From Piezodorus guildinii (lineage: Eukaryota > Arthropoda > Insecta > Hemiptera > Pentatomidae): 64,000 nt of DNA. The notes beneath the pieces were generated by a model. It was not told where the DNA came from. It saw nothing but the letters and a program-made list of their open reading frames with translations, and did no database searches. The stretch covers positions 1 to 64,000 of the forward strand of contig JAJSOM010000015.1 of the NCBI GenBank assembly GCA_023052935.1, given 5' to 3'. Positions 3,426 to 50,100 of the stretch are shown one piece after another. Within the stretch, counting starts at the first letter, position 1; each line of letters opens with the position of its first letter. Both the position numbers and the translations under genes were made by a program.

Positions 3426-3428
3426 TAA

Positions 3429-27620: not shown

Positions 27621-27687
27621 GTGGGGGAAAATCTGTATTTAGTGACAAAAATTCTACAACTCTTGATTTAAAAAATATTAAATAAAA

Positions 27688-31000: not shown

Positions 31001-31134
31001 AAAGGGCCTAGCCGGATAAGCATGTGAAATCTGCCCCCGCGTGTATTAGAACCAAATTTATACCATTGAGTCACACCTATGAGAAACAACCTTACGCAAA
31101 TTTTTAGCCCCTTAATCCGAACGGGGGGGAAGTT

Positions 31135-31735
31135 ATGGTGGGGGGAAGATAAAACAAAAAAAATTGTTTTCTCCTGAACTGCTCAACTGATTTTCACGAA
31201 AAAAATATATGTTATGGATTTTATAAATAGGTTTCAAAAAATATTTTTTTAAATTTTTTTCCACGAAAATGTTGGTCCCAAAAAATTTTTGAATTTTTCA
31301 AAAAAATATTTTTTGGTTATGATGGTTTGGTACACCTCCAATTTTTCGCTACTTTATTTCATTATAGGGTCCTCCATAACATATATTTTTTTCAATTTTA
31401 TCGGAAGTGTACCCCATGGTGAAAAATAAAAAAAACAAATTTTTCTCCTGAACGAATCAACCGACTTTCACGAAAAAAATATATGGTAATGGTTTTCTAA
31501 CAGAGTTTCAAAAAACATTTTTTTGAATTTTTTATTTCGGAAACGTGAGTCAAAATTTTAATTTTTAATTTTTCAAAAATAAATTTTAAATTATGTTAGA
31601 TTAGTACACCAACAATTTTTTACTAATTTGATTCATTGGAGGGTCCTGCGCAATATATTTTTTTTTCAAGTTGGTCTAAAATGTACCCAATAAGGAAAAA
31701 TAAAAAAAACAGCATTTTTTCAACTCTCTGAGGTC
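31135..31735 (+). repeat. Diverged ~300-bp tandem duplication, left arm
   Basis: Two head-to-tail units (about 31135-31435 and 31436-31735) share TTTTCTCCTGAAC, TTCACGAAAAAAATATATG, TTTCAAAAAA, GGGTCCT and AAGTGTACCC-type blocks. They are clearly diverged from each other although left and right arms match closely, so this duplication predates the palindrome. Confidence 0.75.
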
Positions 31736-31923
31736 ACGCATGAAGAGCTCTATCCCTAGCTGTGGGACCGTAATGCCATTAGATATCACTTACACACTAT
31801 GCACATACATACTATTTATTATACCTATTATTATAAATATCTTATATTGGATCGAATATATTTATTTTTGTTTGCATTTAGTTAATTTTTTTTACTTGGA
31901 TAACTACTACACAGTACTATATG

Positions 31924-31986
<63 letters not shown>
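31924..31986. repeat. (AT)n microsatellite, left arm only
   Basis: About 60 bp of AT. The equivalent right-arm position (about 46960-46980) has only GTTTTATATAAATATAGC. Confidence 0.95.
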
Positions 31987-31990
<4 letters not shown>

Positions 31991-32089
31991 GTAACTAAAA
32001 AGATTTTTTTAATATATATTTTTTCATATTAGTAGAGGGAAAACAGGCGAGCTGGCGCACTTTTTTGAGGAGCCAATCAGATGCCAGCA

Positions 32090-32275
32090 TTTGGTCACGT
32101 GACCTATGGCGGGAGATTTGAATTTGAATTTCCACCACGACCTAACCTTAACCACGCTGGTTCGCGCCATCGACCTAACCTAAACCACCGGGCCACGCCC
32201 CTTTTTAGTCACGTGTTCCTTTATCGACCTAACCTAAACCACTAAGCCACGCCCCTTTTTGATCACGTGACCCCT
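32090..32275. promoter_or_regulatory. Cluster of CACGTG palindromes, left arm
   Basis: GTCACGTGAC-type sites at 32094-32103, 32211-32217 and 32261-32269 lie among repeats of CGACCTAACC and CCACGCCCCTTTTT. Two further CACGTG sites recur near 34928 and 35121. CACGTG is a bHLH-type E-box. A regulatory or origin role is inferred from clustering only. Confidence 0.5.
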
Positions 32276-32282
32276 GTTTGAG

Positions 32283-33520
32283 GTTATAAAGCATGAGTCT
32301 ACCCGACGTACATTTTCTTTTCCCTACGTTTTGGGCTAATTTAGTCTTTATAAAGCATGAGTCTACCCGTCCGCCATTTTCTTTTATGACGTCACAATTT
32401 ACAAAGCATGAGTCTACCCGGTGTCCATTTTCTTTTCCCTACGTTTTGGGCTAATTTAGTATTTATAAAGCATGAGTCTACCCGTCCCCCATTTTCTTTT
32501 ATGACGTCACAATTTACAAAGCATGAGTCTACCCGGTGTCCATTTTCTTTTCCCTACGTTTTGGGCTAATTTAGTATTTATAAAGCATGAGTCTACCCGT
32601 CCGCCATTTTGTTTTATGACGTCACAATTTACAAAGCATGAGTCTACCCGGCGTCCATTTTCTTTTCCCTACGTTTTGGGCTAATTCAGTATTTATAAAG
32701 CATGAGTCTACCCGTCCGCCATTTTCTTTTATGACGTCACAGTTTACAAAGCATGAGTCTACCCGACGTCCATTTTCTTTTCCCTACGTTTTGGGCTAAT
32801 TTAGTATTTATAAAGCATGAGTCTACCCGGACGCCATTGTGCTTCCCCCACTCCTTCAATAGTTAACCAATCAGAGTGCCTAACTTGAGAGTTCCTCCCG
32901 GCTAGGTCCGATGGTCAAATTGTAATGTGTGCTTTAACGAAACCTTTCAAACTGAGACATAACCTTACTATTGTTTACATTTTTTTGAAACCTCCCTTAC
33001 TGTTACATAACCTTCTCATTGTTTACATTTTGCTCCCCCCACTCCTTCAATAGTTAACCAATGAGAGTGCCTAACTTGAGAGTTTATAAAGCATGAGTCT
33101 ACCCGGCGTCCATTTTCTTTTCCCTACGTTTTGGGCTAATTTAGTCTTTATAAAGCATGAGTCTACCCGGCGTCCATCTTCTTTTCCCTACGTTTTGGGC
33201 TAATTTAGTATTTATAAAGCATGAGTCTACCCGTCCACCATTTTCTTTTATGACGTCACAATTTACAAAGCATGAGTCTACCCGGTGTCCATTTTCTTTT
33301 CCCTACGTTTTGGGCTAATTTAGTATTTATAAAGCATGAGTCTACCCGTCCCCCATTTTCTTTTATGACGTCACAATTTACAAAGCCTGAGTCTACTCGA
33401 CGTCCATCTTCTTTTCCCTACGTTTTGAGCGTATTAAGTATTTATAAAGCATGAGTCTACCCGTCCGCCATATTGTTTTATGACGTCACAATTTAAAAGC
33501 CTTAAGTCTATCCAGCCGCC
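32283..33520 (+). repeat. Promoter-like tandem array, left arm
   Basis: A dimeric unit of ~117 bp repeats with interruptions. Half A reads TTTATAAAGCATGAGTCTAC followed by CCGTCCGCCATTTTCTTTT and ATGACGTCAC. Half B reads TTTACAAAGCATGAGTCTAC followed by a CCATTTTCTTTTCCCTACG and TTTTGGGCTAATTTAGTA block. I count seven TGACGTCA palindromes and about ten TATAAAG strings. The sequence CCATTTT in each half is also strongly conserved. Interruption at about 32860-33085 holds a GTTAACCAAT(C/G)AGAGTGCC block twice. Arrays of CRE-type palindromes resemble the homologous-region enhancers/origins of large insect DNA viruses in style; homology is not claimed. Confidence 0.85.
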
Positions 33521-33540
33521 ATTTTGTTTTTTTAATATAG

Positions 33541-34440
33541 GATGATTATACCTGACCGGTTCGAGCATGCACCGACATGTCGAATCATGTAAAAACAGGT
33601 TAGCGAAAGTACAAACAGGTTTGAATCATGTTGAAGCATGCAGGTATGTGAAACGGAAACATGGACTTTGAACCTTCCTAATGCCTAATAATATAAACAT
33701 CGTTATAGGGCTTCTTAATCCTATACAGCTTTGAACTTTGATCTTTAATCCTACATTTTAAGAAGCGATAAAAAGTTCCTTAAGCTTAAACGTAAACATG
33801 GACTTTGAACCTTCTTAATGCCTTTAATATAAACATCGTTATACGGCTTCTTAATCCTGTACAGCTTTGAACTTTGATCCTTAATCCTAATATTTAAATA
33901 GCGATAAAAGGTTCCTTAAGCTCTTGGACTACGGTCTATTATCTTCCTATGTGTAATGATTTTTAATCCTATACAGCTTTGAACTTTGATTCTTAATCCT
34001 ACTATTTAAATAGCGATAAAAGGTTCCTTAAGCTCTGAGACTTTGAAGCATTATTATATATATAAATATAATGCGGACCTTGTACGTTTCATGTCTTAGT
34101 ATAGTAAATCCCTAAAGATTTAATCGTAAAAAAGATAAATTTAAGACGTCAATATCAACTTTGTACTGATAATTGCTTAAAGTATAAATATTCCTTAAGC
34201 TCTGAGACTTTGAACCATTACTCTCTTAAGTATATATATAAATATAATGCGGATCTTGTACGTTTTATCTCTTAGTATAGTAAAAAGATTTAATCGTAAA
34301 CAAGATAAATTTAAGACGTAAATATCAACTTTGTTCTAATAATTGCTGAAAGTATAAATATATAATAATATAAAACTTGTACCTATTTCGGTAGGCGAAT
34401 ATAATTTTTTTATATATTTTTTCAACCGTTTTAATTGTTT
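33541..34440 (+). repeat. Nested tandem blocks, left arm
   Basis: Three copies of a ~100-bp unit with ATACAGCTTTGAACTTTGAT and AGCGATAAAAGGTTCCTTAA (33715-34040) precede two ~165-bp units with CTCTGAGACTTTGAA, ATAATGCGGA(C/T)CTTGTACG and TAAATTTAAGACGT (34034-34370). A palindrome-rich start at 33553-33650 repeats GCATGC and ACATGT-type strings. No coding potential. Confidence 0.75.
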
Positions 34441-34477
34441 TCTCAACTTCTTAGACCATTTTTTTTTTACCTTTTCT

Positions 34478-34621
34478 ATGTATTATTTACTTATCATTAA
34501 CAATTCTGCTTTAGAATTGCTATTTCGCGATGTTTTCGGAAGAGTTCGTCTCGGCCGGCTTTGGTCTTCTACCTCACCTAGTTGGACAATCTCTAATCCT
34601 TCCGAAAGAAATAAACAATGA
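34478..34621 (+). CDS. Possible 47-aa micro-ORF, left arm
   Basis: A start at 34478 opens a 47-codon frame ending TGA at 34619-34621. It contains a FRDVFGRVRLGRLWSS string and a serine/threonine-rich tail. The identical frame exists at 44233-44376 in the other arm, whereas the T-run just upstream differs in length between arms. No domain or homolog is recognised and it could be chance in a duplicated block. Part of the upstream sequence (34375-34470) is paralogous to 35745-35835. Confidence 0.25.
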   Translation: MYYLLIINNSALELLFRDVFGRVRLGRLWSSTSPSWTISNPSERNKQ

Positions 34622-34984
34622 TATCGTTAATTCTATCGAAAAAACAACTAACTAGTGTTATCTCTTGCTAAGGTATTATCAATAATATAGCCGTGAATAA
34701 TGATACACTACATCGTAATTATTTCGTATTACACGAGTTTATCGTATCATTATATAGTCGTTAAGTAATCAAAGTTTAGAACCTTTTTCAGTTCAATATT
34801 GAGCCTTCAGCTCTTTGATTTAGAATTTTTAATCTTTAAAAACATAATAAAAATAGTACGTTATGACAGAAAATTTCAATAAACACCTCTATCTAACTTT
34901 AACTAGTATACGACGCCCACTATTAATCACGTGACCTATGAACACATCCCCTTATTGTTCATGCCTTTTTCTAATCAGCTAATC

Positions 34985-35365
34985 AAATTGCTCCATTTTA
35001 TGGATTTGAAAGTTCCTTCCGGCTAGGTCCGGTGGTCATCGCTAACCTACTAATTGTATTTATATAAATTCAATCAACATTTCGGCCTAAACTTAACTAA
35101 CATACAATTCCCTTTTTAATCACGTGACCCTGGGACCCTGTTCTTATCATTCATACCCATCTCTAATCGGTGCTCTATTTTAAGCATCTGAAAGTTTGAT
35201 CCGGCGAAGTCCGATGACACTTGCTAACCTACTCATTGTACTTATATTTTACGCATGCAAAAGTTCCTCCCGGCTAGTTCCGATGGTACTCGCTAGCTTA
35301 CTCATTGTACTTATAATTTAAATATCCGAAAGTTCCTCCCGGTTAGTTCTGATGATACTCGCGGA
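34985..35365 (+). repeat. Tandem repeats around CCCGGCTAG..CCGATGGT, left arm
   Basis: Four spaced units carry AAAGTTCCTCCCGGCTAG and TCCGATGGT followed by CGCTA(A/G)C(C/T)TAC and CATTGTACTTATA. A related string is at 32892-32915. Non-coding and of unknown role. Confidence 0.7.
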
Positions 35366-36018
35366 CCCATTGCCAAGTTTACTTTCTTTTTCTTTTTTAA
35401 GCCTTCCTAACTGTTACATAACCTTCTCAATGAATGAAAATTTTGTAGCATGTTCAATAGTATAATTTTCGGTAATATTTCTATACCTTTCTTATTTAAT
35501 TTAATTGTCTCCTAACTTAGTCGCAGAACACACATTACCTTATAAAATATCCACAAGAGCGCAGCACCCACTCTATTTTGTAATATGTCCAACAGGGCGC
35601 AGCTCCTATTCCTTTGGGATTGTATATGTTATCTTCCCAATAATGTTTTGTAGAGGCTGAGTGTGCCCAACCGCCATTTTATTTTATGGCGCCACCATGT
35701 TTGAAGCATAAATATTTATATACACAATGATATAAAACTTCATTTTCGACCTATTACGGTCGGAAATTTGTTTTTTATACATAATATTTTCAGCATTTAC
35801 AATTGTTTTTGCGCCTTCTCAGACGGTTATTTACCTGTCCGGACGATTACTTAATTTTAATCAACAACTATGGTCTACCCAGATCTGGATTACCCTCATA
35901 CTCGGAAAGCTTTGGCCTTCCCCCACTCCTTTTCATCCCAACATCGGTACACACCTCCTAATCCTTTAAGCCTTGGACTTTGAACAGATAATTCCTAAAT
36001 TTTGTAAACAAAGGAGAC

Positions 36019-36060
36019 TATAAATAGGGATGGTTTTCTAGGCCTCTTTCTCATTCTCTT
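36019..36060 (+). promoter_or_regulatory. TATA box and initiator of the zinc-finger gene, left arm
   Basis: TATAAATAG at 36019-36027 is followed ~30 nt later by TTCTCATTCTC (36048-36058), an insect-type initiator context. This predicts a start near 36051 and a ~320-nt leader before the ATG at 36370. The arrangement is the standard spacing for RNA polymerase II. Confidence 0.6.
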
Positions 36061-36369
36061 TTACAGCCTCTTGAAAGATAATTTTAAACGTGTCAGTACT
36101 GTTTTATTGAACTGTTTTTCATTTTGGCTTTAAATTGTAGATCATTATAAGTTTTTCAACTATTTTCCATTTTTCTTTTACCCTTCGGATTTTCTAATTT
36201 ATCTTTCTTATGTTTAGAAGAAATTTATTCATTTATTATTTGCTATTTGTTTTTTTGTTTTTGTTTTTTTACGATTATTATTTTGATTATTTCATTTATT
36301 TTTAAGTTTATTAATTATATCGCATTTAATTTTTTTTTTTTTTTTTTTTTTTATCATTCGTTTTCAATA

Positions 36370-37011
36370 ATGGCATCAGGTAACAATAAGTGTGGATATT
36401 GTGATAGAAATTTCAGCCGAAAAGATAGCAAACTACGTCACGAAAAGTCATGCTTGACAACTCAGAAACGGCGTACATGTGTTTCTTGCGGCGAGATTTT
36501 TTCGTCTCTAAACCAACTCATGAATCATTTACGTCGTTGTCAGAGAGAAACTCCCCTTGTCATGACGAAACGAAGGCGGTTGGAAATGGCTATAGGGCCT
36601 TTATTTGAAATCGAGACAGCGTTTGGAGGGGATATTAAGACTTTTTACCTTCCATGTTCTGAACCAATTGATGCTGTGGAATTTCTCTGCCATCAGACTG
36701 AAACATTATATCGATTAATTACAGAATTTTTGGCGGAATCAGATGCTCCTCTAAAATTCAATCTAGTTCTAAAGGCCACTTATGAAAATATTAGTGGGGA
36801 GACGTGCGATAGGGCGTTTAAAACCCAAAACATAACAATATCCGAAAGTTCTTCGGTCTTGAACAGTCTCAGTGGAAGCTACTCGAAAATAGCTACCGAG
36901 ATGGAGGATATGACAATAAAGGGGAGCGGTTGGTTCCTTAAAAGTCTAGACGGACTTCTTCTAAGAGTGAATCGATTAAGGCCTCTAGGTGCCTCAAGTC
37001 ATGATAAATAA
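36370..37011 (+). CDS. Two-zinc-finger protein with GSGW-type motif, left arm copy
   Basis: 213 residues from ATG at 36370 (context AATAATGG). The frame is open further upstream to 36247, but that part is a poly-T-derived hydrophobic run with no ATG. Residues 7-27 form C-x2-C-x12-H-x3-C and residues ~36-56 form a second C-x2-C-x12-H-x3-C finger. A basic segment TKRRRLEM follows near residue 65. The C-terminus has GSGWFLKSLDGLLLRVNRLR then PLGASS. I recall this GSGW..L..L.V.....PL...S pattern from arthropod selfish-element proteins, often upstream of a family B DNA polymerase. Here the protein stops shortly after it. Nuclear DNA binding is inferred from the fingers. AATAAA overlaps the stop at 37007-37012. 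The gene is convergent with the two-exon gene at 37721-38150. The copy at 41843-42484 encodes the identical protein. Confidence 0.8.
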   Translation: MASGNNKCGYCDRNFSRKDSKLRHEKSCLTTQKRRTCVSCGEIFSSLNQLMNHLRRCQRETPLVMTKRRRLEMAIGPLFEIETAFGGDIKTFYLPCSEPIDAVEFLCHQTETLYRLITEFLAESDAPLKFNLVLKATYENISGETCDRAFKTQNITISESSSVLNSLSGSYSKIATEMEDMTIKGSGWFLKSLDGLLLRVNRLRPLGASSHDK

Positions 37012-37720
37012 ACTAATTATTTAATGATTAAATTAAATGAATACAAACCAGTTTCTTTCTTTTTTTTTATTATAAGAACATTGTTATATTTTTATTTACT
37101 CAAGTGAAATACTACTTTTGTCCAAGAGAAAAACTTATTATTTTCTTTATTTATTTATTTTTTATTCAATAAAGGTTTAATTTATCACTTGTTAAGGTTT
37201 TACATAATTTTTTTATTATTTTAAAGATATGTATTCTTTATTGGTATTTATATTTATTTAAAAAATATACACACTTAAAAATATGGCCAAATGAAATAAG
37301 GTTTAAAGAAAGTTTTATATTATTTATCGTTCCGGATGCTGTTTAAATAAATAAATCATATGTAATTCACTTAAAAACAACTTAATATTTGTTAAGTTTT
37401 TACATTTTCTGTCATGAACTTTGAACTTTTTAATCCTTTTATGATATCAGGATAGGTGAAGTGGCCTTTGAACCAGTAATTCTCAGCCATCAAACATTGT
37501 TATTATTTCTCTATATTTTTAATAATTTTGACTTGAAAAAATGAGGAATCATTTTTTTATGAAATATATAGGTCTTTATTAATAATTTAATGATATAATA
37601 TTTTAGTAACACTATTGAAAATGGGTACAAAGGGGAAATAAAAAAATAAAAAAACGGCATAAGGAAACAAAAAATATTTATTATATCCAAATACTGTTAT
37701 GTACAGCAAATAAAACACCA
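37012..37720. other. AT-rich spacer between convergent genes, left arm
   Basis: Contains several AATAAA strings usable as polyadenylation signals for both convergent genes and a TTTGAACTTTTTAATCC string echoing the tandem blocks at 33715-34040. No coding region. Confidence 0.5.
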
Positions 37721-38150
37721 TTAAATAAATGAAATTTCATCTTTAAAACAAACTCTCCCTTTATATATTAATGATATCATCTCATTATTATTGTTGAAAG
37801 CTACAATCTCTTCATCCGACATCTTAAATCTTTTAGGAAGATATACTCTGATTGTATTATCATGATCCTTCAACGTGGCGACCAACGCTAACCCTAATTT
37901 GGTCTTAAGATGCTCCAATTCCGCTATGATGTATGGCCGCCCGATTTCAATATCCTTCAGTTTACACACTAAACGAGCGTCATCGTTTAAATGATTCAAT
38001 AACTTTTTGAAGTCCCTCGCAGAACTAAAAATAGAGAAAAAAAACAAAACAGGTGTTTAGGATAAATATGGTAAGAAAAAAACTCTATTAAAAAAAATAA
38101 ATAATAATAATGAGATATTATTAAAGTAATAAATATACTTACGAATTCAT
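37721..38150 (-). CDS. Two-exon gene for a 103-aa basic/beta-rich protein, left arm copy
   Basis: Exon 1 is 38143-38150 (ATGAATTC, Met-Asn and two bases of Ser). The intron is 38025-38142 (118 nt, GTAAGT...TTTTTAG). Exon 2 is 37721-38024. Splicing gives MNSSARDFKK as the start in frame, whereas the unspliced frame has no ATG and runs into the T-rich splice tract. The body contains LKDIEIGRPYIIAELEHLKT, then KLGLALVATL and a VYLPKRF motif near residues 68-74, ending YKGRVCFKDEISFI. The pattern 'Y.I......KTK.G......L......VYLPKRF...' resembles small proteins I recall beside polymerase-bearing arthropod elements. An OB-like or ssDNA-binding role is a guess from the short beta-rich plan. The copy at 40703-41132 is identical in protein. 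Confidence 0.75.
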
Positions 38151-38203
38151 GACGATTGATATGATGATGATGTAAAACAATATGCTACGATCGGATGCTA
38201 GAA

Positions 38204-38300
38204 CGAAAATGAATCCCTAGGTACTCACTCGTCAAGGACTATTAGTTGTGTGCATGCACGCTAGTTGCGCATGCGCTAACCCCCCTCCCTTCTTCCCCCT
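38204..38300 (-). promoter_or_regulatory. GC-rich promoter region of the two-exon gene, left arm
   Basis: Upstream of the start at 38150 lie GTGCATGCAC (38250-38259) and GCGCATGCGC (38267-38276), two self-complementary sites. The second equals the core of NRF-1/Ewg-type sites. No TATA box is seen, in contrast with the zinc-finger gene. A C-rich stretch continues to 38340. Confidence 0.5.
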
Positions 38301-38420
38301 CCACCAACCTCACTCCTACTCTTACCATCACTCGTCCAATTTCAAACAATCATTTTCACGATTGTCAATTCTCTGTCACTAATTAGGACATTATTTTTTG
38401 TTAATATTCATATTTGATAT

Positions 38421-38421
38421 A

Positions 38422-38452
<31 letters not shown>

Positions 38453-38466
38453 TCTCTCTCTCTCTC
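38421..38466. repeat. (TC)n microsatellite, left arm
   Basis: About 45 bp of TC with one interruption; mirrored as (GA)n at 40387-40431. Confidence 0.95.
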
Positions 38467-39399
38467 GAAATTCAATAATTCATTAAGTTATTGGAAACAT
38501 CAAGACTCTCATGTAGAATTAGATCGTGAAGGTTTTTATTCAGCATATCGCGATTAGGAAATCTTCCAGAAATATAAGTTGCTAAACATCAACGTATAAG
38601 CATTTGATGCTAATTGGAAATGTAATAACCACTGATTATCATGAAACTGTTAGTAAAAATAAGGAAGAGCATAAAGTCCAGCGGAGAGATAGGATGAGAA
38701 TTCATCAGATGAAAATTTGTCAACTATTTGATAGTCAATATGATCCAATCTTCCTAATATTTACACTTTTATAGCATTATTGTCCAACGATTGCGAAATC
38801 GTTCTTAAAATAATGCATGTTTTTATATTTTCTAAGGTTTTATTAATGGATATTCCTATTATTATCTCACTACTGTTGAGAGGTACGAACGATTGGGGAT
38901 GATTTATATAAGGTTAAGTTCTATAACCTTATTCTATGAGGTTCGTGGTCTTACAGGTACAATTTCCTAATATTGAAGATCAGGAACTTACATTCACATG
39001 AATTATCAGGTACGCTATCTGTCTTCCTCATATAATGGAATAAATAAATGAAGTACTAGTTTAATCACCTTTAGGAAACTCAGATCTTGTTTTTGTGAAA
39101 CAGAAACAATTTTTTATTTTAGGATAGGGACTGTTGTTCATTGATTTTGATTTTCACCTGTGCCTGTACCTGCCCTTCCCCCCTTCTCCCTCTCCCCCCC
39201 CTAACCTCCCCCCCCTCCCTCCTCCTCCCTGGCTCACCCGTGAAACGAACGCTAGTCGTCTACATGAACACATTAGTTGTATATTTTAAGGATTTTTTTT
39301 TTTTTATATTTATATTTCAGGACGATATCAGCCGGTCGTGGAAGTTAGAGTTAGTTATGGGTGATGGGAGATGGTCAAAAGTGGTTAAGGATGGTCAGG
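38467..39399. other. Central noncoding part of the left arm
   Basis: No gene. 39170-39235 is an almost pure C/T tract and 39290-39305 a T run. Mirrored at 39456-40386. Confidence 0.5.
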
Positions 39400-39455
39400 G
39401 ATAGAGAGAGAGAGGTTCAGATATCGGGAGAAATCTGAACCTCTCTCTCTATCCC
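39400..39455. repeat. Centre of the palindrome: hairpin with 10-nt loop
   Basis: AGAGAGAGAGAGGTTCAGAT (39403-39422) pairs exactly with ATCTGAACCTCTCTCTCT (39433-39450), leaving ATCGGGAGAA as the unpaired loop (39423-39432). The loop is the only non-symmetric sequence at the centre. It is compatible with a replicated hairpin telomere or a template-switch junction. Confidence 0.9.
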
Positions 39456-40386
39456 TGACCATCCTTAACCACTTTTGACCATCTCCCATCACCCATAACT
39501 AACTCTAACTTCCACGACCGGCTGATATCGTCCTGAAATATAAATATAAAAAAAAAAAATCCTTAAAATATACAACTAATGTGTTCATGTAGACGACTAG
39601 CGTTCGTTTCACGGGTGAGCCAGGGAGGAGGAGGGAGGGGGGGGGAGGGTAGGGGGGGGAGAGGGAGAAGGGGGGAAGGGCAGGTACAGGCACAGGTGAA
39701 AATCAAAATCAATGAACAACAGTCCCTATCCTAAAATAAAAAATTGTTTCTGTTTCACAAAAACAAGATCTGAGTTTCCTAAAGGTGATTAAACTAGTAC
39801 TTCATTTATTTATTCCATTATATGAGGAAGACAGATAGCGTACCTGATAATTCATGTGAATGTAAGTTCCTGATCTTCAATATTAGGAAATTGTACCTGT
39901 AAGACCACGAACCTCATAGAATAAGGTTATAGAACTTAACCTTATATAAATCATCCCCAATCGTTCGTACCTCTCAACAGTAGTGAGATAATAATAGGAA
40001 TATCCATTAATAAAACCTTAGAAAATATAAAAACATGCATTATTTTAAGAACGATTTCGCAATCGTTGGACAATAATGCTATAAAAGTGTAAATATTAGG
40101 AAGATTGGATCATATTGACTATCAAATAGTTGACAAATTTTCATCTGATGAATTCTCATCCTATCTCTCCGCTGGACTTTATGCTCTTCCTTATTTTTAC
40201 TAACAGTTTCATGATAATCAGTGGTTATTACATTTCCAATTAGCATCAAATGCTTATACGTTGATGTTTAGCAACTTATATTTCTGGAAGATTTCCTAAT
40301 CGCGATATGCTGAATAAAAACCTTCACGATCTAATTCTACATGAGAGTCTTGATGTTTCCAATAACTTAATGAATTATTGAATTTC
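39456..40386. other. Central noncoding part of the right arm
   Basis: Mirror of 38467-39399, with a G-rich tract at 39620-39690. Confidence 0.5.
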
Positions 40387-40400
40387 GAGAGAGAGAGAGA

Positions 40401-40431
<31 letters not shown>
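40387..40431. repeat. (GA)n microsatellite, right arm
   Basis: Mirror of the TC tract at 38421-38466. Confidence 0.95.
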
Positions 40432-40552
40432 TATATCAAATATGAATATTAACAAAAAATAATGTCCTAATTAGTGACAGAGAATTGACAATCGTGAAAA
40501 TGATTGTTTGAAATTGGACGAGTGATGGTAAGAGTAGGAGTGAGGTTGGTGG

Positions 40553-40650
40553 AGGGGGAAGAAGGGAGGGGGGTTAGCGCATGCGCAACTAGCGTGCATG
40601 CACACAACTAATAGTCCTTGACGAGTGAGTACCTAGGGATTCATTTTCGT
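40553..40650 (+). promoter_or_regulatory. GC-rich promoter region of the two-exon gene, right arm
   Basis: GCGCATGCGC at 40577-40586 and GTGCATGCAC at 40594-40603, mirror of the left-arm sites, 100-125 bp upstream of the start at 40703. Confidence 0.5.
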
Positions 40651-40702
40651 TCTAGCATCCGATCGTAGCATATTGTTTTACATCATCATCATATCAATCG
40701 TC

Positions 40703-41132
40703 ATGAATTCGTAAGTATATTTATTACTTTAATAATATCTCATTATTATTATTTATTTTTTTTAATAGAGTTTTTTTCTTACCATATTTATCCTAAACAC
40801 CTGTTTTGTTTTTTTTCTCTATTTTTAGTTCTGCGAGGGACTTCAAAAAGTTATTGAATCATTTAAACGATGACGCTCGTTTAGTGTGTAAACTGAAGGA
40901 TATTGAAATCGGGCGGCCATACATCATAGCGGAATTGGAGCATCTTAAGACCAAATTAGGGTTAGCGTTGGTCGCCACGTTGAAGGATCATGATAATACA
41001 ATCAGAGTATATCTTCCTAAAAGATTTAAGATGTCGGATGAAGAGATTGTAGCTTTCAACAATAATAATGAGATGATATCATTAATATATAAAGGGAGAG
41101 TTTGTTTTAAAGATGAAATTTCATTTATTTAA
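40703..41132 (+). CDS. Two-exon gene for a 103-aa protein, right arm copy
   Basis: Exon 1 is 40703-40710, the intron is 40711-40828 (GTAAGT to TTTTTAG) and exon 2 is 40829-41132 with TAA at the end. The protein is identical to the left-arm copy. The two copies are divergent about the palindrome centre, with starts ~2.55 kb apart. Preservation of the splice sites and reading frame in both arms supports a real gene. It ends 710 bp from the end of the convergent zinc-finger gene. Confidence 0.75.
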
Positions 41133-41842
41133 TGGTGTTTTATTTGCTGTACATAACAGTATTTGGATATAATAAATATTTTTTGTTTCCTTATGCCGTT
41201 TTTTTATTTTTTTATTTCCCCTTTGTACCCATTTTCAATAGTGTTACTAAAATATTATATCATTAAATTATTAATAAAGACCTATATATTTCATAAAAAA
41301 AATGATTCCTCATTTTTTCAAGTCAAAATTATTAAAAATATAGAGAAATAATAACAATGTTTGATGGCTGAGAATTACTGGTTCAAAGGCCACTTCACCT
41401 ATCCTGATATCATAAAAGGATTAAAAAGTTCAAAGTTCATGACAGAAAATGTAAAAACTTAACAAATATTAAGTTGTTTTTAAGTGAATTACATATGATT
41501 TATTTATTTAAACAGCATCCGGAACGATAAATAATATAAAACTTTCTTTAAACCTTATTTCATTTGGCCATATTTTTAAGTGTGTATATTTTTTAAATAA
41601 ATATAAATACCAATAAAGAATACATATCTTTAAAATAATAAAAAAATTATGTAAAACCTTAACAAGTGATAAATTAAACCTTTATTGAATAAAAAATAAA
41701 TAAATAAAGAAAATAATAAGTTTTTCTCTTGGACAAAAGTAGTATTTCACTTGAGTAAATAAAAATATAACAATGTTCTTATAATAAAAAAAAAGAAAGA
41801 AACTGGTTTGTATTCATTTAATTTAATCATTAAATAATTAGT
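41133..41842. other. AT-rich spacer between convergent genes, right arm
   Basis: Mirror of 37012-37720; a single-base length difference between arms falls within it. Confidence 0.5.
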
Positions 41843-42484
41843 TTATTTATCATGACTTGAGGCACCTAGAGGCCTTAATCGATTCACTCTTAGAAGAAGT
41901 CCGTCTAGACTTTTAAGGAACCAACCGCTCCCCTTTATTGTCATATCCTCCATCTCGGTAGCTATTTTCGAGTAGCTTCCACTGAGACTGTTCAAGACCG
42001 AAGAACTTTCGGATATTGTTATGTTTTGGGTTTTAAACGCCCTATCGCACGTCTCCCCACTAATATTTTCATAAGTGGCCTTTAGAACTAGATTGAATTT
42101 TAGAGGAGCATCTGATTCCGCCAAAAATTCTGTAATTAATCGATATAATGTTTCAGTCTGATGGCAGAGAAATTCCACAGCATCAATTGGTTCAGAACAT
42201 GGAAGGTAAAAAGTCTTAATATCCCCTCCAAACGCTGTCTCGATTTCAAATAAAGGCCCTATAGCCATTTCCAACCGCCTTCGTTTCGTCATGACAAGGG
42301 GAGTTTCTCTCTGACAACGACGTAAATGATTCATGAGTTGGTTTAGAGACGAAAAAATCTCGCCGCAAGAAACACATGTACGCCGTTTCTGAGTTGTCAA
42401 GCATGACTTTTCGTGACGTAGTTTGCTATCTTTTCGGCTGAAATTTCTATCACAATATCCACACTTATTGTTACCTGATGCCAT
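41843..42484 (-). CDS. Two-zinc-finger protein with GSGW-type motif, right arm copy
   Basis: Mirror of 36370-37011 with the start at 42484 and stop at 41843. The 213-residue product is identical, including both C2HC fingers, the TKRRRLEM basic segment and the C-terminal GSGW motif. Identity of protein in both arms, with indels tolerated only outside it, suggests recent duplication, gene conversion or selection. Confidence 0.8.
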   Translation of the reverse strand: MASGNNKCGYCDRNFSRKDSKLRHEKSCLTTQKRRTCVSCGEIFSSLNQLMNHLRRCQRETPLVMTKRRRLEMAIGPLFEIETAFGGDIKTFYLPCSEPIDAVEFLCHQTETLYRLITEFLAESDAPLKFNLVLKATYENISGETCDRAFKTQNITISESSSVLNSLSGSYSKIATEMEDMTIKGSGWFLKSLDGLLLRVNRLRPLGASSHDK

Positions 42485-42793
42485 TATTGAAAACGAATGA
42501 TAAAAAAAAAAAAAAAAAAAAAAATTAAATGCGATATAATTAATAAACTTAAAAATAAATGAAATAATCAAAATAATAATCGTAAAAAAACAAAAACAAA
42601 AAAACAAATAGCAAATAATAAATGAATAAATTTCTTCTAAACATAAGAAAGATAAATTAGAAAATCCGAAGGGTAAAAGAAAAATGGAAAATAGTTGAAA
42701 AACTTATAATGATCTACAATTTAAAGCCAAAATGAAAAACAGTTCAATAAAACAGTACTGACACGTTTAAAATTATCTTTCAAGAGGCTGTAA

Positions 42794-42835
42794 AAGAGAA
42801 TGAGAAAGAGGCCTAGAAAACCATCCCTATTTATA
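42794..42835 (-). promoter_or_regulatory. TATA box and initiator of the zinc-finger gene, right arm
   Basis: Mirror of the left-arm promoter; TATAAATAG reads on the minus strand at 42827-42835. Confidence 0.6.
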
Positions 42836-43489
42836 GTCTCCTTTGTTTACAAAATTTAGGAATTATCTGTTCAAAGTCCAAGGCTTAAAGGATTAGGAGG
42901 TGTGTACCGATGTTGGGATGAAAAGGAGTGGGGGAAGGCCAAAGCTTTCCGAGTATGAGGGTAATCCAGATCTGGGTAGACCATAGTTGTTGATTAAAAT
43001 TAAGTAATCGTCCGGACAGGTAAATAACCGTCTGAGAAGGCGCAAAAACAATTGTAAATGCTGAAAATATTATGTATAAAAAACAAATTTCCGACCGTAA
43101 TAGGTCGAAAATGAAGTTTTATATCATTGTGTATATAAATATTTATGCTTCAAACATGGTGGCGCCATAAAATAAAATGGCGGTTGGGCACACTCAGCCT
43201 CTACAAAACATTATTGGGAAGATAACATATACAATCCCAAAGGAATAGGAGCTGCGCCCTGTTGGACATATTACAAAATAGAGTGGGTGCTGCGCTCTTG
43301 TGGATATTTTATAAGGTAATGTGTGTTCTGCGACTAAGTTAGGAGACAATTAAATTAAATAAGAAAGGTATAGAAATATTACCGAAAATTATACTATTGA
43401 ACATGCTACAAAATTTTCATTCATTGAGAAGGTTATGTAACAGTTAGGAAGGCTTAAAAAAGAAAAAGAAAGTAAACTTGGCAATGGGT

Positions 43490-43870
43490 CCGCGAGTATC
43501 ATCAGAACTAACCGGGAGGAACTTTCGGATATTTAAATTATAAGTACAATGAGTAAGCTAGCGAGTACCATCGGAACTAGCCGGGAGGAACTTTTGCATG
43601 CGTAAAATATAAGTACAATGAGTAGGTTAGCAAGTGTCATCGGACTTCGCCGGATCAAACTTTCAGATGCTTAAAATAGAGCACCGATTAGAGATGGGTA
43701 TGAATGATAAGAACAGGGTCCCAGGGTCACGTGATTAAAAAGGGAATTGTATGTTAGTTAAGTTTAGGCCGAAATGTTGATTGAATTTATATAAATACAA
43801 TTAGTAGGTTAGCGATGACCACCGGACCTAGCCGGAAGGAACTTTCAAATCCATAAAATGGAGCAATTTG
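43490..43870 (-). repeat. Tandem repeats around CCCGGCTAG, right arm
   Basis: Mirror of 34985-35365. Confidence 0.7.
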
Positions 43871-44232
43871 ATTAGCTGATTAGAAAAAGGCATGAACAAT
43901 AAGGGGATGTGTTCATAGGTCACGTGATTAATAGTGGGCGTCGTATACTAGTTAAAGTTAGATAGAGGTGTTTATTGAAATTTTCTGTCATAACGTACTA
44001 TTTTTATTATGTTTTTAAAGATTAAAAATTCTAAATCAAAGAGCTGAAGGCTCAATATTGAACTGAAAAAGGTTCTAAACTTTGATTACTTAACGACTAT
44101 ATAATGATACGATAAACTCGTGTAATACGAAATAATTACGATGTAGTGTATCATTATTCACGGCTATATTATTGATAATACCTTAGCAAGAGATAACACT
44201 AGTTAGTTGTTTTTTCGATAGAATTAACGATA

Positions 44233-44376
44233 TCATTGTTTATTTCTTTCGGAAGGATTAGAGATTGTCCAACTAGGTGAGGTAGAAGACCAAAGCCGGC
44301 CGAGACGAACTCTTCCGAAAACATCGCGAAATAGCAATTCTAAAGCAGAATTGTTAATGATAAGTAAATAATACAT
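44233..44376 (-). CDS. Possible 47-aa micro-ORF, right arm
   Basis: Mirror of 34478-34621 with the same predicted product. The neighbouring A run (44390-44398) is one base shorter than in the left arm. Unrecognised and doubtful as a gene. Confidence 0.25.
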   Translation of the reverse strand: MYYLLIINNSALELLFRDVFGRVRLGRLWSSTSPSWTISNPSERNKQ

Positions 44377-44415
44377 AGAAAAGGTAAAAAAAAATGGTCT
44401 AAGAAGTTGAGAAAA

Positions 44416-45315
44416 CAATTAAAACGGTTGAAAAAATATATAAAAAAATTATATTCGCCTACCGAAATAGGTACAAGTTTTATATTATTATATATTTATA
44501 CTTTCAGCAATTATTAGAACAAAGTTGATATTTACGTCTTAAATTTATCTTGTTTACGATTAAATCTTTTTACTATACTAAGAGATAAAACGTACAAGAT
44601 CCGCATTATATTTATATATATACTTAAGAGAGTAATGGTTCAAAGTCTCAGAGCTTAAGGAATATTTATACTTTAAGCAATTATCAGTACAAAGTTGATA
44701 TTGACGTCTTAAATTTATCTTTTTTACGATTAAATCTTTAGGGATTTACTATACTAAGACATGAAACGTACAAGGTCCGCATTATATTTATATATATATA
44801 ATAATGCTTCAAAGTCTCAGAGCTTAAGGAACCTTTTATCGCTATTTAAATAGTAGGATTAAGAATCAAAGTTCAAAGCTGTATAGGATTAAAAATCATT
44901 ACACATAGGAAGATAATAGACCGTAGTCCAAGAGCTTAAGGAACCTTTTATCGCTATTTAAATATTAGGATTAAGGATCAAAGTTCAAAGCTGTACAGGA
45001 TTAAGAAGCCGTATAACGATGTTTATATTAAAGGCATTAAGAAGGTTCAAAGTCCATGTTTACGTTTAAGCTTAAGGAACTTTTTATCGCTTCTTAAAAT
45101 GTAGGATTAAAGATCAAAGTTCAAAGCTGTATAGGATTAAGAAGCCCTATAACGATGTTTATATTATTAGGCATTAGGAAGGTTCAAAGTCCATGTTTCC
45201 GTTTCACATACCTGCATGCTTCAACATGATTCAAACCTGTTTGTACTTTCGCAAACCCTTTGTTTTTACATGATTCGACATGTCGGTGCATGCTCGAACC
45301 GGTCAGGTATAATCA
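44416..45315 (-). repeat. Nested tandem blocks, right arm
   Basis: Mirror of 33541-34440. The segment at 45248-45268 differs from the left arm (TTTCGCAAACCCTTTG against a shorter TTTCGCTAACCTG equivalent). Confidence 0.7.
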
Positions 45316-45337
45316 TCCTATATTAAAAAAACAAAAT

Positions 45338-46575
45338 GGCGGCTGGATAGACTTAAGGCTTTTAAATTGTGACGTCATAAAACAATATGGCGGACGGGTA
45401 GACTCATGCTTTATAAATACTTAATACGCTCAAAACGTAGGGAAAAGAAGATGGACGTCGAGTAGACTCAGGCTTTGTAAATTGTGACGTCATAAAAGAA
45501 AATGGGGGACGGGTAGACTCATGCTTTATAAATACTAAATTAGCCCAAAACGTAGGGAAAAGAAAATGGACACCGGGTAGACTCATGCTTTGTAAATTGT
45601 GACGTCATAAAAGAAAATGGTGGACGGGTAGACTCATGCTTTATAAATACTAAATTAGCCCAAAACGTAGGGAAAAGAAGATGGACGCCGGGTAGACTCA
45701 TGCTTTATAAAGACTAAATTAGCCCAAAACGTAGGGAAAAGAAAATGGACGCCGGGTAGACTCATGCTTTATAAACTCTCAAGTTAGGCACTCTCATTGG
45801 TTAACTATTGAAGGAGTGGGGGGAGCAAAATGTAAACAATGAGAAGGTTATGTAACAGTAAGGGAGGTTTCAAAAAAATGTAAACAATAGTAAGGTTATG
45901 TCTCAGTTTGAAAGGTTTCGTAAAAGCACACATTACAATTTGACCATCGGACCTAGCCGGGAGGAACTCTCAAGTTAGGCACTCTGATTGGTTAACTATT
46001 GAAGGAGTGGGGGAAGCACAATGGCGTCCGGGTAGACTCATGCTTTATAAATACTAAATTAGCCCAAAACGTAGGGAAAAGAAAATGGACGTCGGGTAGA
46101 CTCATGCTTTGTAAACTGTGACGTCATAAAAGAAAATGGCGGACGGGTAGACTCATGCTTTATAAATACTGAATTAGCCCAAAACGTAGGGAAAAGAAAA
46201 TGGACGCCGGGTAGACTCATGCTTTGTAAATTGTGACGTCATAAAACAAAATGGCGGACGGGTAGACTCATGCTTTATAAATACTAAATTAGCCCAAAAC
46301 GTAGGGAAAAGAAAATGGACATCGGGTAGACTCATGCTTTGTAAATTGTGACGTCATAAAAGAAAATGGGGGACGGGTAGACTCATGCTTTATAAATACT
46401 AAATTAGCCCAAAACGTAGGGAAAAGAAAATGGACACCGGGTAGACTCATGCTTTGTAAATTGTGACGTCATAAAAGAAAATGGCGGACGGGTAGACTCA
46501 TGCTTTATAAAGACTAAATTAGCCCAAAACGTAGGGAAAAGAAAATGTACGTCGGGTAGACTCATGCTTTATAAC
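45338..46575 (-). repeat. Promoter-like tandem array, right arm
   Basis: Mirror of 32283-33520 with seven TGACGTCA palindromes and the same TATAAAGCATGAGTCTAC core. A few unit variants differ in single bases from the left arm (for example the CATCG/CACCG variant near 46320). Confidence 0.85.
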
Positions 46576-46582
46576 CTCAAAC

Positions 46583-46768
46583 AGGGGTCACGTGATCAAA
46601 AAGGGGCGTGGCTTAGTGGTTTAGGTTAGGTCGATAAAGGAACACGTGACTAAAAAGGGGCGTGGCCCGGTGGTTTAGGTTAGGTCGATGGCGCGAACCA
46701 GCGTGGTTAAGGTTAGGTCGTGGTGGAAATTCAAATTCAAATCTCCCGCCATAGGTCACGTGACCAAA
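46583..46768. promoter_or_regulatory. Cluster of CACGTG palindromes, right arm
   Basis: Mirror of 32090-32275; CACGTG for example at 46757-46762. Confidence 0.5.
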
Positions 46769-46827
46769 TGCTGGCATCTGATTGGCTCCTCAAAAAAGTG
46801 CGCCAGCTCGCCTGTTTTCCCTCTACT

Positions 46828-46938
46828 CATATTATTATATGTTAATCAAAAAAGTTATGATGACAGACTTGCATGAAGTGTTCGACGAAAAGCCTGTCGA
46901 CTGTTAACTTTTTTGATTATTTAACATATAATAATATG
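46828..46938. repeat. 111-bp hairpin insertion unique to the right arm
   Basis: CATATTATTATATGTTAATC ... pairs with its reverse complement ending CATATAATAATATG, with an inner GACAG/CTGTC pair. The left arm has only CATATTA at this point (about 32024-32030). This looks like a small MITE or fold-back insertion after, or a deletion before, arm duplication. Confidence 0.8.
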
Positions 46939-47161
46939 AAAAAAATCTTTTTAGTTACGTTTTATATAAATATAGCATATAGTGCTGTGTAGTAGTTATC
47001 CAAGTAAGAAAAATTAACTAAATACAAGAAAAATACATATATTCGATCCAATATAAGATATTTATAATAATAGGTATAATAAATAGTATGTATGTGCATA
47101 GTGTGTAAGTGATATCTAATGGCATTACGGTCCCACAGCTAGGGATAGAGCTCTTCATGCG

Positions 47162-47762
47162 TGACCTCAGAGAGTTGAAAAAATGCTGTTTTTTTATTTT
47201 TCCTTATTGGGTACATTTTAGACCAACTTGAAAAAAAAATATATTGCGCAGGACCCTCCAATGAATCAAATTAGTAAAAATTTGTAGGTGTACTAATCTA
47301 ACATAATTTAAAATTTATTTTTGAAAAATTAAAAATTAAAATTTTGACTCACGTTTTCGAAATAAAAAATTCAAAAAAATGTTTTTTGAAACTCTATTAG
47401 AAAACCATTACCATATATTTTTTTCGTGAAAGTCGTTTGATTCGTTCAGGAGAAAAATTTGTTTTTTTTATTTTTCACCATGGGGTACACTTCCGATAAA
47501 ATTGAAAAAAATATATGTTATGGAGGACCCTATAATGAAATAAAGTAGCGAAAAATTGGAGGTGTACCAAACCATCATAACCAAAAAATATTTTTTTGAA
47601 AAATTCAAAAATTTTTTGGGACCAACATTTTCGTGGAAAAAAATTTAAAAAAATATTTTTTGAAACCTATTTATAAAATCCATAACATATATTTTTTTCG
47701 TGAAAATCAGTTGAGTAGTTCAGGAGAAAACAATTTTTTTTGTTTTATCTTCCCCCCTCCAT
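47162..47762 (-). repeat. Diverged ~300-bp tandem duplication, right arm
   Basis: Mirror of 31135-31735 with a few substitutions. Confidence 0.75.
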
Positions 47763-47896
47763 AACTTCCCCCCCGTTAAGATTAAGGGGCTAAAAATTTG
47801 CGTAAGGTTGTTTCTCATAGGCGTGACTCAATGGTATAAATTTGGTTCAAATACACGCGGGGGCAGATTTCACATGCTTATCTGGCTAGGCCCTTT

Positions 47897-48535: not shown

Positions 48536-48837
48536 TGCGCACCCCAGATTATTTAATTAAATATCCAAATAGCTGTTCATTGAGGATAACAATATAATAG
48601 ATTATCTAATAAATACATGTTTCTTTCGAAACCCAATGTAGTTAATACACTTTTTTTATCTCTTATTAATTTTTAATTTCTTGGGATTATTAATTAATTA
48701 ATTGGGACAATATTACAAAATACCCAGGAGTCAGCCACCAAACTAATGAATTATCTAAAAGACACATCAATATTTTCCAAAATTAAAAAAAAAAAAAGTT
48801 TCTGTTTTTGATTTTTAATATTTTATATATATTGTTA
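48536..48837 (+). repeat. R1 partial copy (right half, decayed)
   Basis: Contains GATAACAATATAATAGATTA and ATACATGTTTCTTTCGAAA, matching the R1 right half. Confidence 0.4.
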
Positions 48838-49712
48838 CTTTCACCTACTATAAATAGCAAGGGGAAGTATTGCAATCGTGAAAATTTTCGAATTCCAGTT
48901 TTCAACGGAAATACACGTTTTAGGGTCCCCTGAGTCCAAATAACCAAGTCCGTGTGTGTGTGTGTGGTAACTCCCGGGCGGAAACGGTAAGTCCTATGAA
49001 ACTGAAATTTCATATTTAAGACAACTATACGCCCGAGACGTGACAAAACGTTTTTCATCAAAATGAACTTACCAGAAGAGGCACTTTATACCATGCATTT
49101 TGCACCTTTTTCGATTTTCTCAAAAACGGTTTCGACGATTTTGATTAAACTCGCTATATCGATGTAAAATTTAATGGGCTTTAATATCATGTAGGTTTTA
49201 TTTGGATAAAAATGGTCTGACAGGGCTTAAATGCCGATATTTTAAATTTTCTTCCCCTAAAGTACCTTTAATTTTGTATATTTAATAATAATAACTAGAT
49301 TATCTTGTTAACGCTGATGAAAAACAGGTAAATATATAAATTGAACAAAATTCGATACCCAACTAAAGGAGAAAACAGAAACAATATTTTTTTTGTTGCA
49401 ATTTTTCGTTTTTGAACATAAGAGCAGTAATATACATGTATGATATACCGTTGGAAAGCTAAAGATTTTAGAAATAAATATCATCTTATACACAAGCTTT
49501 TAAAAGTTAATAGAGAGTGATGAAACGAACATAAAACTAACTGATTATTTTAGATAATAATATAATAGATTTTTTAATAAAACACATGTTTCTATATAAA
49601 TTCAATTTGATTAATTCCTTAATAATTTCACGTATTTTTATCTCTAACTGTATTTGAAAATTCTTTCATTGTTTTTAAAAATGGAGGTAAGTGAAAGTCG
49701 TGTGTTGCCTGC
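48838..49712 (+). repeat. R1 dispersed repeat, near full-length copy
   Basis: Starts CTTTCACCTAC and ends GTAAGTGAAAG near 49687-49697 plus the tail. Collinear with 2527-3425 and 20238-21112. Short open stretches at 48783-49061 and 49308-49493 (minus) recur in other R1 copies but carry no domain. Confidence 0.8.
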
Positions 49713-50100
49713 ACCAGATTTATTTATTTATTATTATTATTATTTTTTTTTTTTAATTTTGTTCTTTTCTTATATGCAGTATATATATGCAGTATTCTTA
49801 TAAAATATTATATCTGTATTATTAGTATTATGTATGTTTTAGTATATATGTATTTTATGATTAGTATATTTGTATGTATTATTTTCGTATTGTATGTATT
49901 ATTTCGTATATTATGTATAATGTTTGTATTGTATTTTATTATTTATCATGTATGTATTATTATTAGTATATATATATGTATGTATTATTAGTATATATGT
50001 ATGTATTATTACTTTTATTATATTGTATCTGCATTATTAGTTTAGGGCTAAAATGACCTTTATGGTTGAAAAGCCTTTATGTTACAAAATAAATAAATAA
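49713..50100 (+). mobile_element. AT-rich insertion, probable retrotransposon 3' end
   Basis: Low-complexity TATGTATTATTAGTATA iterations end in AAAATGACCTTTATGG and CAAAATAAATAAATAA. An R1-type end string (GTGAAAGTCGGGTGTTGG) reappears at about 50130-50148. This suggests insertion near an R1 end. Confidence 0.35.

What the first reader, a model, noticed from the sequence alone, without database searches (positions are those of the whole stretch)
31001..47896. 16.9-kb near-perfect palindrome carrying duplicated genes: candidate undescribed mobile or virus-like element
Two ~8.4-kb inverted arms around a 10-nt loop each hold the same two genes, a promoter-like array and several tandem-repeat blocks, with no polymerase, integrase or transposase visible. 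It interrupts another repeat (R1), giving clear limits. No element class I know consists of two complete gene-bearing arms with essentially no unique centre. It may be an inverted dimer of a linear DNA element whose polymerase lies elsewhere.
Basis: partly seen in the sequence, partly recalled or inferred. Interest (0 to 1): 0.92.

Follow-up and report, generated by a model that had tools for sequence, protein, structure and literature searches.

The report
Palindromic, hairpin-born Polinton satellite element
A stretch of DNA from a large eukaryotic genome (probably an animal) that reads the same on both strands is one copy of a multiplying, stripped-down relative of a virus-like jumping element, apparently doubled back on itself during copying, which gives an unusual view of how such elements replicate.

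Summary
The palindrome is real, but its stated limits belong to another element. The outer ~1 kb on each side is a common 2-kb foldback repeat; the palindrome proper is 32031-46827 (14,797 bp), inserted in it with a 6-bp target duplication (CATATT), as empty copies show. Its ends match Polintons/Mavericks in the same genome, one of which has polymerase, integrase, ATPase and capsid genes. Each arm is a Polinton's polymerase end, with the polymerase cut to its first ~211 residues, the region published as the terminal-protein (primer) domain. It is not an assembly artefact: all 40 scored centre loci have inverted arms, and 16 of 16 elements read at both ends have 6-bp duplications. Arms within a copy differ by 0-5 substitutions per 4 kb; copies differ by 6-93. 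Other palindromes start from the capsid end, so they arise repeatedly. Best reading: fold-back (hairpin) derivatives of protein-primed linear DNA, integrated in trans; this lineage multiplied as a satellite. The mechanism is inferred, not shown. My literature listings showed no report of palindromic Polintons.

The parts
31001..32030 (+). left half of the host ~2.05-kb foldback element (not part of the palindrome proper), including TSD copy 1
   Evidence: matches arms of L002-L006 and L008 up to about window position 32034, i.e. to the junction plus a few shared bases
32025..32030 (.). 6-bp target site duplication CATATT, left copy
   Evidence: empty sites in L003, L004, L006
32031..39422 (+). 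left arm of the palindromic element, 5'-AGTAGAGGG...
32284..33500 (+). 115-bp tandem arrays near the end (TATA-like and TGACGTCA motifs, read by eye); similar sequence lies in Polinton ends
36370..37011 (+). gene 1, 213 aa: C2H2 fingers plus a domain matching the N-terminal 211 residues of Polinton pPolB (terminal-protein domain D1); candidate priming Ser186
   Evidence: zf-C2H2; 71.6% identity to C6el pPolB, E 1e-106; alignment; section 7 of PMC11071308
37721..38024 (-). gene 2, exon 2: small protein of unknown family; one 82-aa relative, P0001, 73% identity
38143..38150 (-). gene 2, putative exon 1 (ATGAATTC) with GT...AG intron 38025-38142
   Evidence: read by eye; not tested by RNA
39423..39432 (.). 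10-nt centre loop ATCGGGAGAA between GGTTCAGAT and ATCTGAACC
   Evidence: same centre at other loci
39433..46827 (-). right arm, ...CCCTCTACT-3'
40703..40710 (+). gene 2, second copy, putative exon 1 (mirror of 38143-38150)
   Evidence: by symmetry
40829..41132 (+). gene 2, second copy, exon 2
41843..42484 (-). gene 1, second copy
45348..46574 (-). 115-bp tandem arrays, right arm
46828..46833 (.). 6-bp target site duplication CATATT, right copy
46828..47896 (-). right half of the host foldback element, including TSD copy 2 and the foldback's own middle

Best explanation
It is a non-autonomous, near-perfectly palindromic derivative of a Polinton (Maverick). Shown: 14.8-kb element with Polinton-type ends and 6-bp TSD; arms homologous to the pPolB-side end of a Polinton with most of pPolB missing; many copies; arms matched within each copy compared. 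Inferred: a truncated linear molecule with one Polinton end folded back at its broken 3' end during protein-primed, strand-displacing replication and was copied into an inverted dimer with a 10-nt turn. Because both ends of the dimer are Polinton ends, polymerase and integrase from complete Polintons can replicate and insert it. It cycles between a single-arm hairpin and a duplex palindrome, which keeps the arms alike. It probably persists as a satellite; the kept 213-aa protein would be a stand-alone terminal protein (inferred from homology only).
For: Empty sites and TSD. 16 of 16 elements read at both ends carry a perfect 6-bp TSD and AGTAGA...TCTACT ends: 13 of the 14 pairs; the 14th (C1el) at its true outer ends, read by eye; C14b, read by eye; window. 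Of the 16, 6 are palindromic, 8 ordinary, 2 not read inside. Window arm aligns to the pPolB-side end of C6el; gene 1 is 71.6% identical to C6el pPolB residues 1-211. C6el has DNA_pol_B_2, rve, A32-like ATPase and DJR capsid. Arm-arm substitutions 0,0,0,0,5,2 in 6 elements against 6-93 (median 48) in 99 between-element comparisons over ~4 kb. At 40 of 40 scored centre loci arm sequence lies inverted on both sides: 35 with two matched arms, 5 one-arm loci read past the centre. Palindromes also from the capsid side: the 8 inverted capsid-gene pairs that I read all have inverted arms, with differing turn points; one pair carries the same kind of stop codon in both genes. The D1 domain of polinton pPolB is reported as a terminal protein, from structure models (PMC11071308: abstract, section 7 and passages read).
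Against: No extrachromosomal hairpin or duplex was observed, and no raw reads were available. Chromosomal gene conversion could also keep arms alike, and for one element (C5_226: 5 within, 7-8 to the nearest other) the contrast is small. A GA-repeat difference beside the loop goes with loop orientation in 4 of the 5 simple centres viewed (equal in the fifth), so arms are not fully equalised at the tip. No non-palindromic parent with this centre was found among the 40 scored of 83 candidates. Gene 2 was not found in C6el, C1el or C14b. No sign of purifying selection within the family: gene 1 has 1 silent and 5 replacement sites, gene 2 exon 2 has 1 and 3, though numbers are too small for a test. 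In C5_953 the sampled stretches show no gene 1 although it is palindromic, so gene 1 does not seem to be needed to form a palindrome. Models of both proteins had low confidence, pLDDT 43.5 and 38.4.
Confidence: 0.8

Rival explanations
1. Chromosomal inverted duplication after insertion: single Polinton ends were duplicated in place by fold-back repair, and arms are kept alike by intrachromosomal gene conversion.
For: Fold-back junctions with short filler or overlaps are also typical of chromosomal break repair (recalled); arms are alike within loci.
Against: The 6 palindromes read at both ends stop exactly at element ends with 6-bp TSDs and unduplicated target; the same centre recurs at dozens of loci; homogeneity stops at the element border, with the flanking host arms 1.4% different.
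Confidence: 0.1
2. Assembly or foldback-read artefact.
For: Perfect palindromes are classic chimera products (recalled); the window lies on an unplaced 118.8-kb contig with a 5-kb run of N.
Against: Same palindrome on C1-C7 at different places, TSDs at 16 of 16 elements read, arms with private differences such as an insertion in one C1el arm, and two-sided flanks.
Confidence: 0.02
3. Palindrome arose once for this lineage, before integration, but the element now moves as ordinary double-stranded DNA; arm identity comes only from young age plus gene conversion, with no hairpin stage.
For: Shared centre among copies; GA-repeat asymmetry retained with loop orientation in 4 of 5; C5_226 arms are nearly as far apart as its nearest relatives.
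Against: C7_864 arms differ by 2 while its nearest of the compared relatives differs by 71 or more, and C5_143 by 0 against 29; palindromes from both Polinton ends point to a replication habit.
Confidence: 0.15

Closest known systems
Polinton/Maverick elements (Preplasmiviricota)
   Same: 6-bp TSD; AGT-type termini (vertebrate Mavericks: (AGT)2...(ACT)2 and 6-bp TSD; passages of PMC8097293 read); end sequence and pPolB N-terminus homologous to a complete Polinton in this genome
   Different: no polymerase core, integrase, ATPase or capsid gene; two gene-bearing arms with no unique middle
Hairpin/palindromic deletion derivatives of protein-primed linear plasmids (kalilo of Neurospora; pGKL1-derived hairpin plasmid)
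   Same: hairpin and duplex forms of a deletion derivative of a protein-primed linear DNA
   Different: those are mitochondrial or cytoplasmic; this one is integrated in chromosomes in many copies. Kalilo: only the reference title seen (in PMC11071308); pGKL1 hairpin plasmid recalled, no call
AAV snapback genomes
   Same: replication-born fold-back form of one genome end
   Different: parvovirus, packaged particles; only the abstract start seen in a search listing (PMC8235507)
Foldback/MITE elements
   Same: long inverted arms
   Different: the host 2-kb repeat is such an element; the inner palindrome has Polinton ends, Polinton TSD length and genes

Membership tests
Polinton/Maverick | 6-bp target site duplication | tested here: met
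   window CATATT with empty sites; 16 of 16 family members read at both ends
Polinton/Maverick | AG/AGT-type termini in inverted repeats | tested here: met
   5'-AGTAGAGGG...CCCTCTACT-3'
Polinton/Maverick | protein-primed DNA polymerase B | tested here: not met
   only a region matching the N-terminal 211 residues is present
Polinton/Maverick | RVE integrase | tested here: not met
   no further ORF of 120 aa or more in the element (shorter ORFs, not all searched); rve found in C6el
Polinton/Maverick | DJR capsid, packaging ATPase | tested here: not met
   no further ORF of 120 aa or more in the element; both found in C6el
Non-autonomous Polinton derivative | ends shared with autonomous Polintons in the same genome | tested here: met
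   32046-34551 aligns to C6el ends; AGTAGAGGG ends on 7 ordinary Polintons
Protein-primed hairpin replicon | covalent terminal protein and hairpin form in cells | not testable with these tools
   needs DNA from the organism
Protein-primed hairpin replicon | candidate priming Ser/Tyr between helix 2 and last strand, Gly/Pro nearby | tested here: inconclusive
   Ser186 in KGSGW; Ser also in C6el and C1el; strand/helix order fits but the model is low confidence
Foldback TE | member of the 2-kb host foldback family | tested here: not met
   the host copies compared lack the inner 14.8 kb

The most novel reading that the evidence does not exclude
A new kind of eukaryotic satellite replicon: a 7.4-kb single-arm hairpin DNA that carries its own stand-alone terminal protein and one small protein, borrows Polinton polymerase and integrase, and inserts as a palindromic dimer. 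The recurrent palindromes from both Polinton ends would be a fossil record showing that Polintons replicate outside the chromosome by protein priming and strand displacement.
Probability: 0.45. Interest if true: 0.88.

Novelty: new variant of a known kind. Interest (0 to 1): 0.78.

Why it matters
How Polintons replicate is largely inferred from their genes (my recalled view of the field). A genome with many palindromic derivatives, from both ends, with shared or differing turn points and matched arms, makes the protein-primed, hairpin-forming route directly testable, and it adds a palindromic satellite to the Polinton world. I saw no report of palindromic Polintons in the listings (open-licence PMC papers only; the few papers listed as holding both words were not opened); 'palindrom' does not occur in the main text of PMC8097293 or PMC6431247. 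It also warns annotators not to dismiss long palindromes as assembly faults.

Tried and rejected
Rejected: one palindrome with limits 31001/47896 (nested insertion shown); a MITE insertion in the right arm (it is the middle of the host foldback); flip/flop of the loop as proof of hairpin replication (insertion orientation explains it); selection test on genes 1 and 2 (too few changes); 'one-arm' centre hits as non-palindromic parents (all 5 continue into the inverted arm); finding the host foldback's own TSD (none clear in 6 copies viewed). One search compared arms without turning the right-hand ones; it is meaningless and was redone.

Led nowhere: protein database searches for gene 1 and an alignment search for gene 2 (only P0001); viral contig scans; PDB and NCBIfam searches (zinc fingers for gene 1, only weak matches, E 0.095 or more, for gene 2, none for the C14b polymerase ORF); Rfam and tRNA scans; both structure models were poor, so no fold search was run. 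The polymerase ORFs of C14b gave no DNA_pol_B_2 match in Pfam, only Endonuclease_7 and weak zinc-finger-type matches; I call them polymerase by motifs read by eye and by likeness to C6el and C1el. I recalled an OB-fold likeness for gene 2; nothing here supports or refutes it.

Caveats: genome searches score only the best candidates (40 in the DNA searches), so copy numbers are uncertain. In one search all 15 fetched arms were compared; one broken arm (C4_170_R) was dropped. In one search I read two 2-kb stretches in each of 10 of the 14 end pairs. Of the capsid pairs I read the 8 with equal or nearly equal scores, and for 7 of them only the part between the two genes; three further minus/plus neighbours within 10 kb with unequal scores (C2:155854191/155860792, C4:25574614/25581919, C4:25587711/25597470) were not read.
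Full report
What was reported and what is there. The window has a near-perfect palindrome from 31001 to 47896. Aligned arm to arm, it falls in two zones: an outer 861 bp with 12 substitutions and an inner ~7.39 kb with 4 substitutions and 7 small indels. The whole genome is held (1.203 Gb, 434 contigs; window = first 64 kb of the 118.8-kb contig C14). Searching it with the left outer kilobase gave 84 matches (40 of 2213 candidates scored), many in plus/minus pairs about 1.1 kb apart. These are ~2.05-kb foldback elements. Six of them (L002-L006, L008) were compared with the window: the left outer arm matches to about 32034 and the right outer arm to about 46827. Empty copies L003, L004 and L006 read straight through ...TTTTTTCATATTATTATATG..., while the window has CATATT on both sides of an insert that begins AGTAGAGGG and ends CCCTCTACT. 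So the palindrome proper is 32031-46827, inserted in the middle of a foldback element, which itself interrupts a minus-strand copy of the R1 repeat (two partial matches at 61-66% identity).

A family with Polinton insertion marks. The first 260 bp of the insert has 835 candidates in the genome; 40 were scored, giving 41 matches, of which 30 form 15 facing pairs 10.9-19.2 kb apart, the window's included. I read both ends of the other 14 pairs: 13 of 14 have a perfect 6-bp target duplication. The 14th (C1el) has its true ends about 180 bp farther out, with duplication ATTGTT (by eye). A relative on the window's own contig (C14b, 105758-118012) has GACAAC (by eye). With the window that is 16 of 16. 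All end in AGTAGA...TCTACT. Vertebrate Mavericks are described with 6-bp duplications and (AGT)2...(ACT)2 ends (PMC8097293, passages only).

The complete relative. C6el (C6:9338828-9354684) is not palindromic. Its ORFs match DNA_pol_B_2 (3e-17), integrase core rve (1e-15) with a chromodomain just under its cut-off, an A32-like ATPase (2.8e-5) and the double-jelly-roll capsid domain (2e-118): a Polinton by these features. The window arm aligns to its polymerase-side end: 32046-34551 in pieces at 81-90%, gene 1 at 75% (DNA), and a 100-bp piece from beyond the polymerase stop at 72%. Gene 1 (213 aa) is 71.6% identical to residues 1-211 of C6el pPolB (E 1e-106), and 32% identical to the matching region in C1el and C14b. 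It stops just before the next conserved block of pPolB. A preprint on these polymerases assigns the N-terminal domain D1 to the terminal protein from structure models, followed by an OTU-like protease, with a Ser or Tyr linking residue between helix 2 and strand 4 and a Gly or Pro nearby (PMC11071308: abstract, section 7 and passages read). In the window protein Ser186 sits in KGSGW after the last predicted helix, and Ser is also there in C6el and C1el; the model is poor (pLDDT 38.4), so this is a lead. Gene 2 has one known relative, P0001 (73%), and was not found in C6el, C1el or C14b. C14b's polymerase ORFs matched Endonuclease_7 in Pfam but not DNA_pol_B_2.

Palindromes are heritable and recurrent. 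With gene-1 DNA, 40 of 250 candidates were scored: 15 inverted pairs and 10 single matches, all 99-100% identical. With the centre, 40 of 83 candidates were scored, giving 40 loci: 35 have both arms (18 full length with the 2-nt gap) and 5 have one matched arm (the script's tally says 34 and 6 because it books one overlapping pair as one-arm). The 5, plus 2 with very short second arms, were read past the centre, and all 7 continue into the other arm in inverted orientation. In the unequal ones, one arm comes within about 20 nt of the query's centre end and the other is cut at varying points. Chosen by end sequence alone, 10 of the 14 pairs were sampled inside: 7 look like ordinary Polintons, 91-99% identical to C6el, and 3 are palindromes (C3_217 and C4_318 of the window type; C5_953 from the capsid side, with no gene 1 in the stretches read). 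C1el is a palindrome with a pPolB-type gene in each arm (one broken), a 37-nt loop and a LINE-like insert in one arm only. The capsid domain has 128 matches (126 of 157 candidates scored), among them 8 close inverted pairs with equal (7) or nearly equal (1) scores; in one pair both genes have one TAA stop. The middles of these 8 were read (7, 1), and all show inverted arms, 98.9-99.9% alike, with differing turn points; L098 and L104 have no match to C6el at the threshold used. Three further inverted neighbours with unequal scores were not read. Some of these may be centre revisions of others, but the window type, C1el, C5_953 and L101 turn at unrelated places, so separate origins are likely. 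The five junctions read closely show short filler, overlaps or a tight hairpin turn.

Arms are matched within each copy. Over ~4 kb, arm-to-arm substitutions in 6 elements are 0, 0, 0, 0, 5 and 2; 99 between-element comparisons give 6-93, median 48. In all 6 the arms are closer to each other than to any other compared arm, though narrowly in C5_226 (5 against 7-8). In 14 of 15 arms gene 1 and gene 2 exon 2 are open; one is broken. Matched arms that stop at the element border (the host arms differ by 1.4%) fit equalisation before or at insertion, as expected if the moving form is a hairpin, but gene conversion is not excluded. A GA-repeat difference beside the loop goes with loop orientation in 4 of 5 simple centres, so equalisation is not complete at the tip. 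Changes among copies give no sign of purifying selection on either gene, on very few sites.

Mechanism. Shown: nested insertion, Polinton ends and target duplications, homology to the polymerase end, many palindromic copies, palindromes from both Polinton ends, matched arms. Inferred: fold-back priming of a displaced or broken single strand in protein-primed replication makes an inverted dimer; its two Polinton ends let helper polymerase and integrase copy and insert it; a hairpin stage keeps arms alike. The retained terminal-protein domain could let this lineage supply its own primer, which may be why it multiplied; C5_953 suggests that it is not needed to form a palindrome. Precedents are hairpin derivatives of protein-primed linear plasmids (kalilo: reference title seen; pGKL1 hairpin plasmid: recalled) and AAV snapback genomes (abstract start in a listing).

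Verdict. The element is a non-autonomous, palindromic Polinton derivative: a new variant of a known kind, very unlikely to be an artefact. No paper on palindromic Polintons appeared in the listings; the few papers listed there that hold both words were not opened.

Noticed in passing
window 31001-32030 and 46828-47896; L002-L006, L008: High-copy ~2.05-kb foldback element (ends AAAGGGCCTAGCC, 2213 candidates) with 274-bp repeats in its arms; no clear target duplication at the six copies viewed, window included.
   Followed up: partly
window 17141-18294: Another near-perfect palindrome, about 1.15 kb, arms 94-99% identical.
   Followed up: no
C14:105758-118012 (L013, L014): Second, divergent palindromic relative on the same contig, with polymerase-like ORFs partly in the arms and a 1.27-kb unique centre; perhaps a centre-deleted form of the C1el type (not aligned directly).
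   Followed up: partly
window 32284-33500 and 45348-46574: 115-bp tandem arrays with TATA-like and TGACGTCA motifs, similar to sequence in ends of complete Polintons.
   Followed up: partly
L056, L091-L094, L096: Centre truncations are one-sided: one arm runs through the loop (in four of these six to ...GAGAAAT), the other is cut at varying points; the loop-side break looks nearly constant.
   Followed up: partly
C4:109663243 and C4:109669778: Two inverted capsid genes, each with one in-frame TAA, in the two arms of one palindrome.
   Followed up: partly
C1:29728034-29732615 (L066): LINE-like insert (Jockey-like, name recalled) in one arm only of a palindromic Polinton; the arm matches overlap by 21 bp at its site.
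   Followed up: partly
window 2520-3426, 20238-21115, 24072-24880, 27671-28261, 48831-49731: R1, a ~0.9-kb repeat of the window in several copies, function unknown.
   Followed up: no
window 37721-38150 and 40703-41132: Gene 2 seems to have a spliceosomal-type intron and has one relative on a 709-nt ENA contig (P0001); its family and role are unknown.
   Followed up: partly
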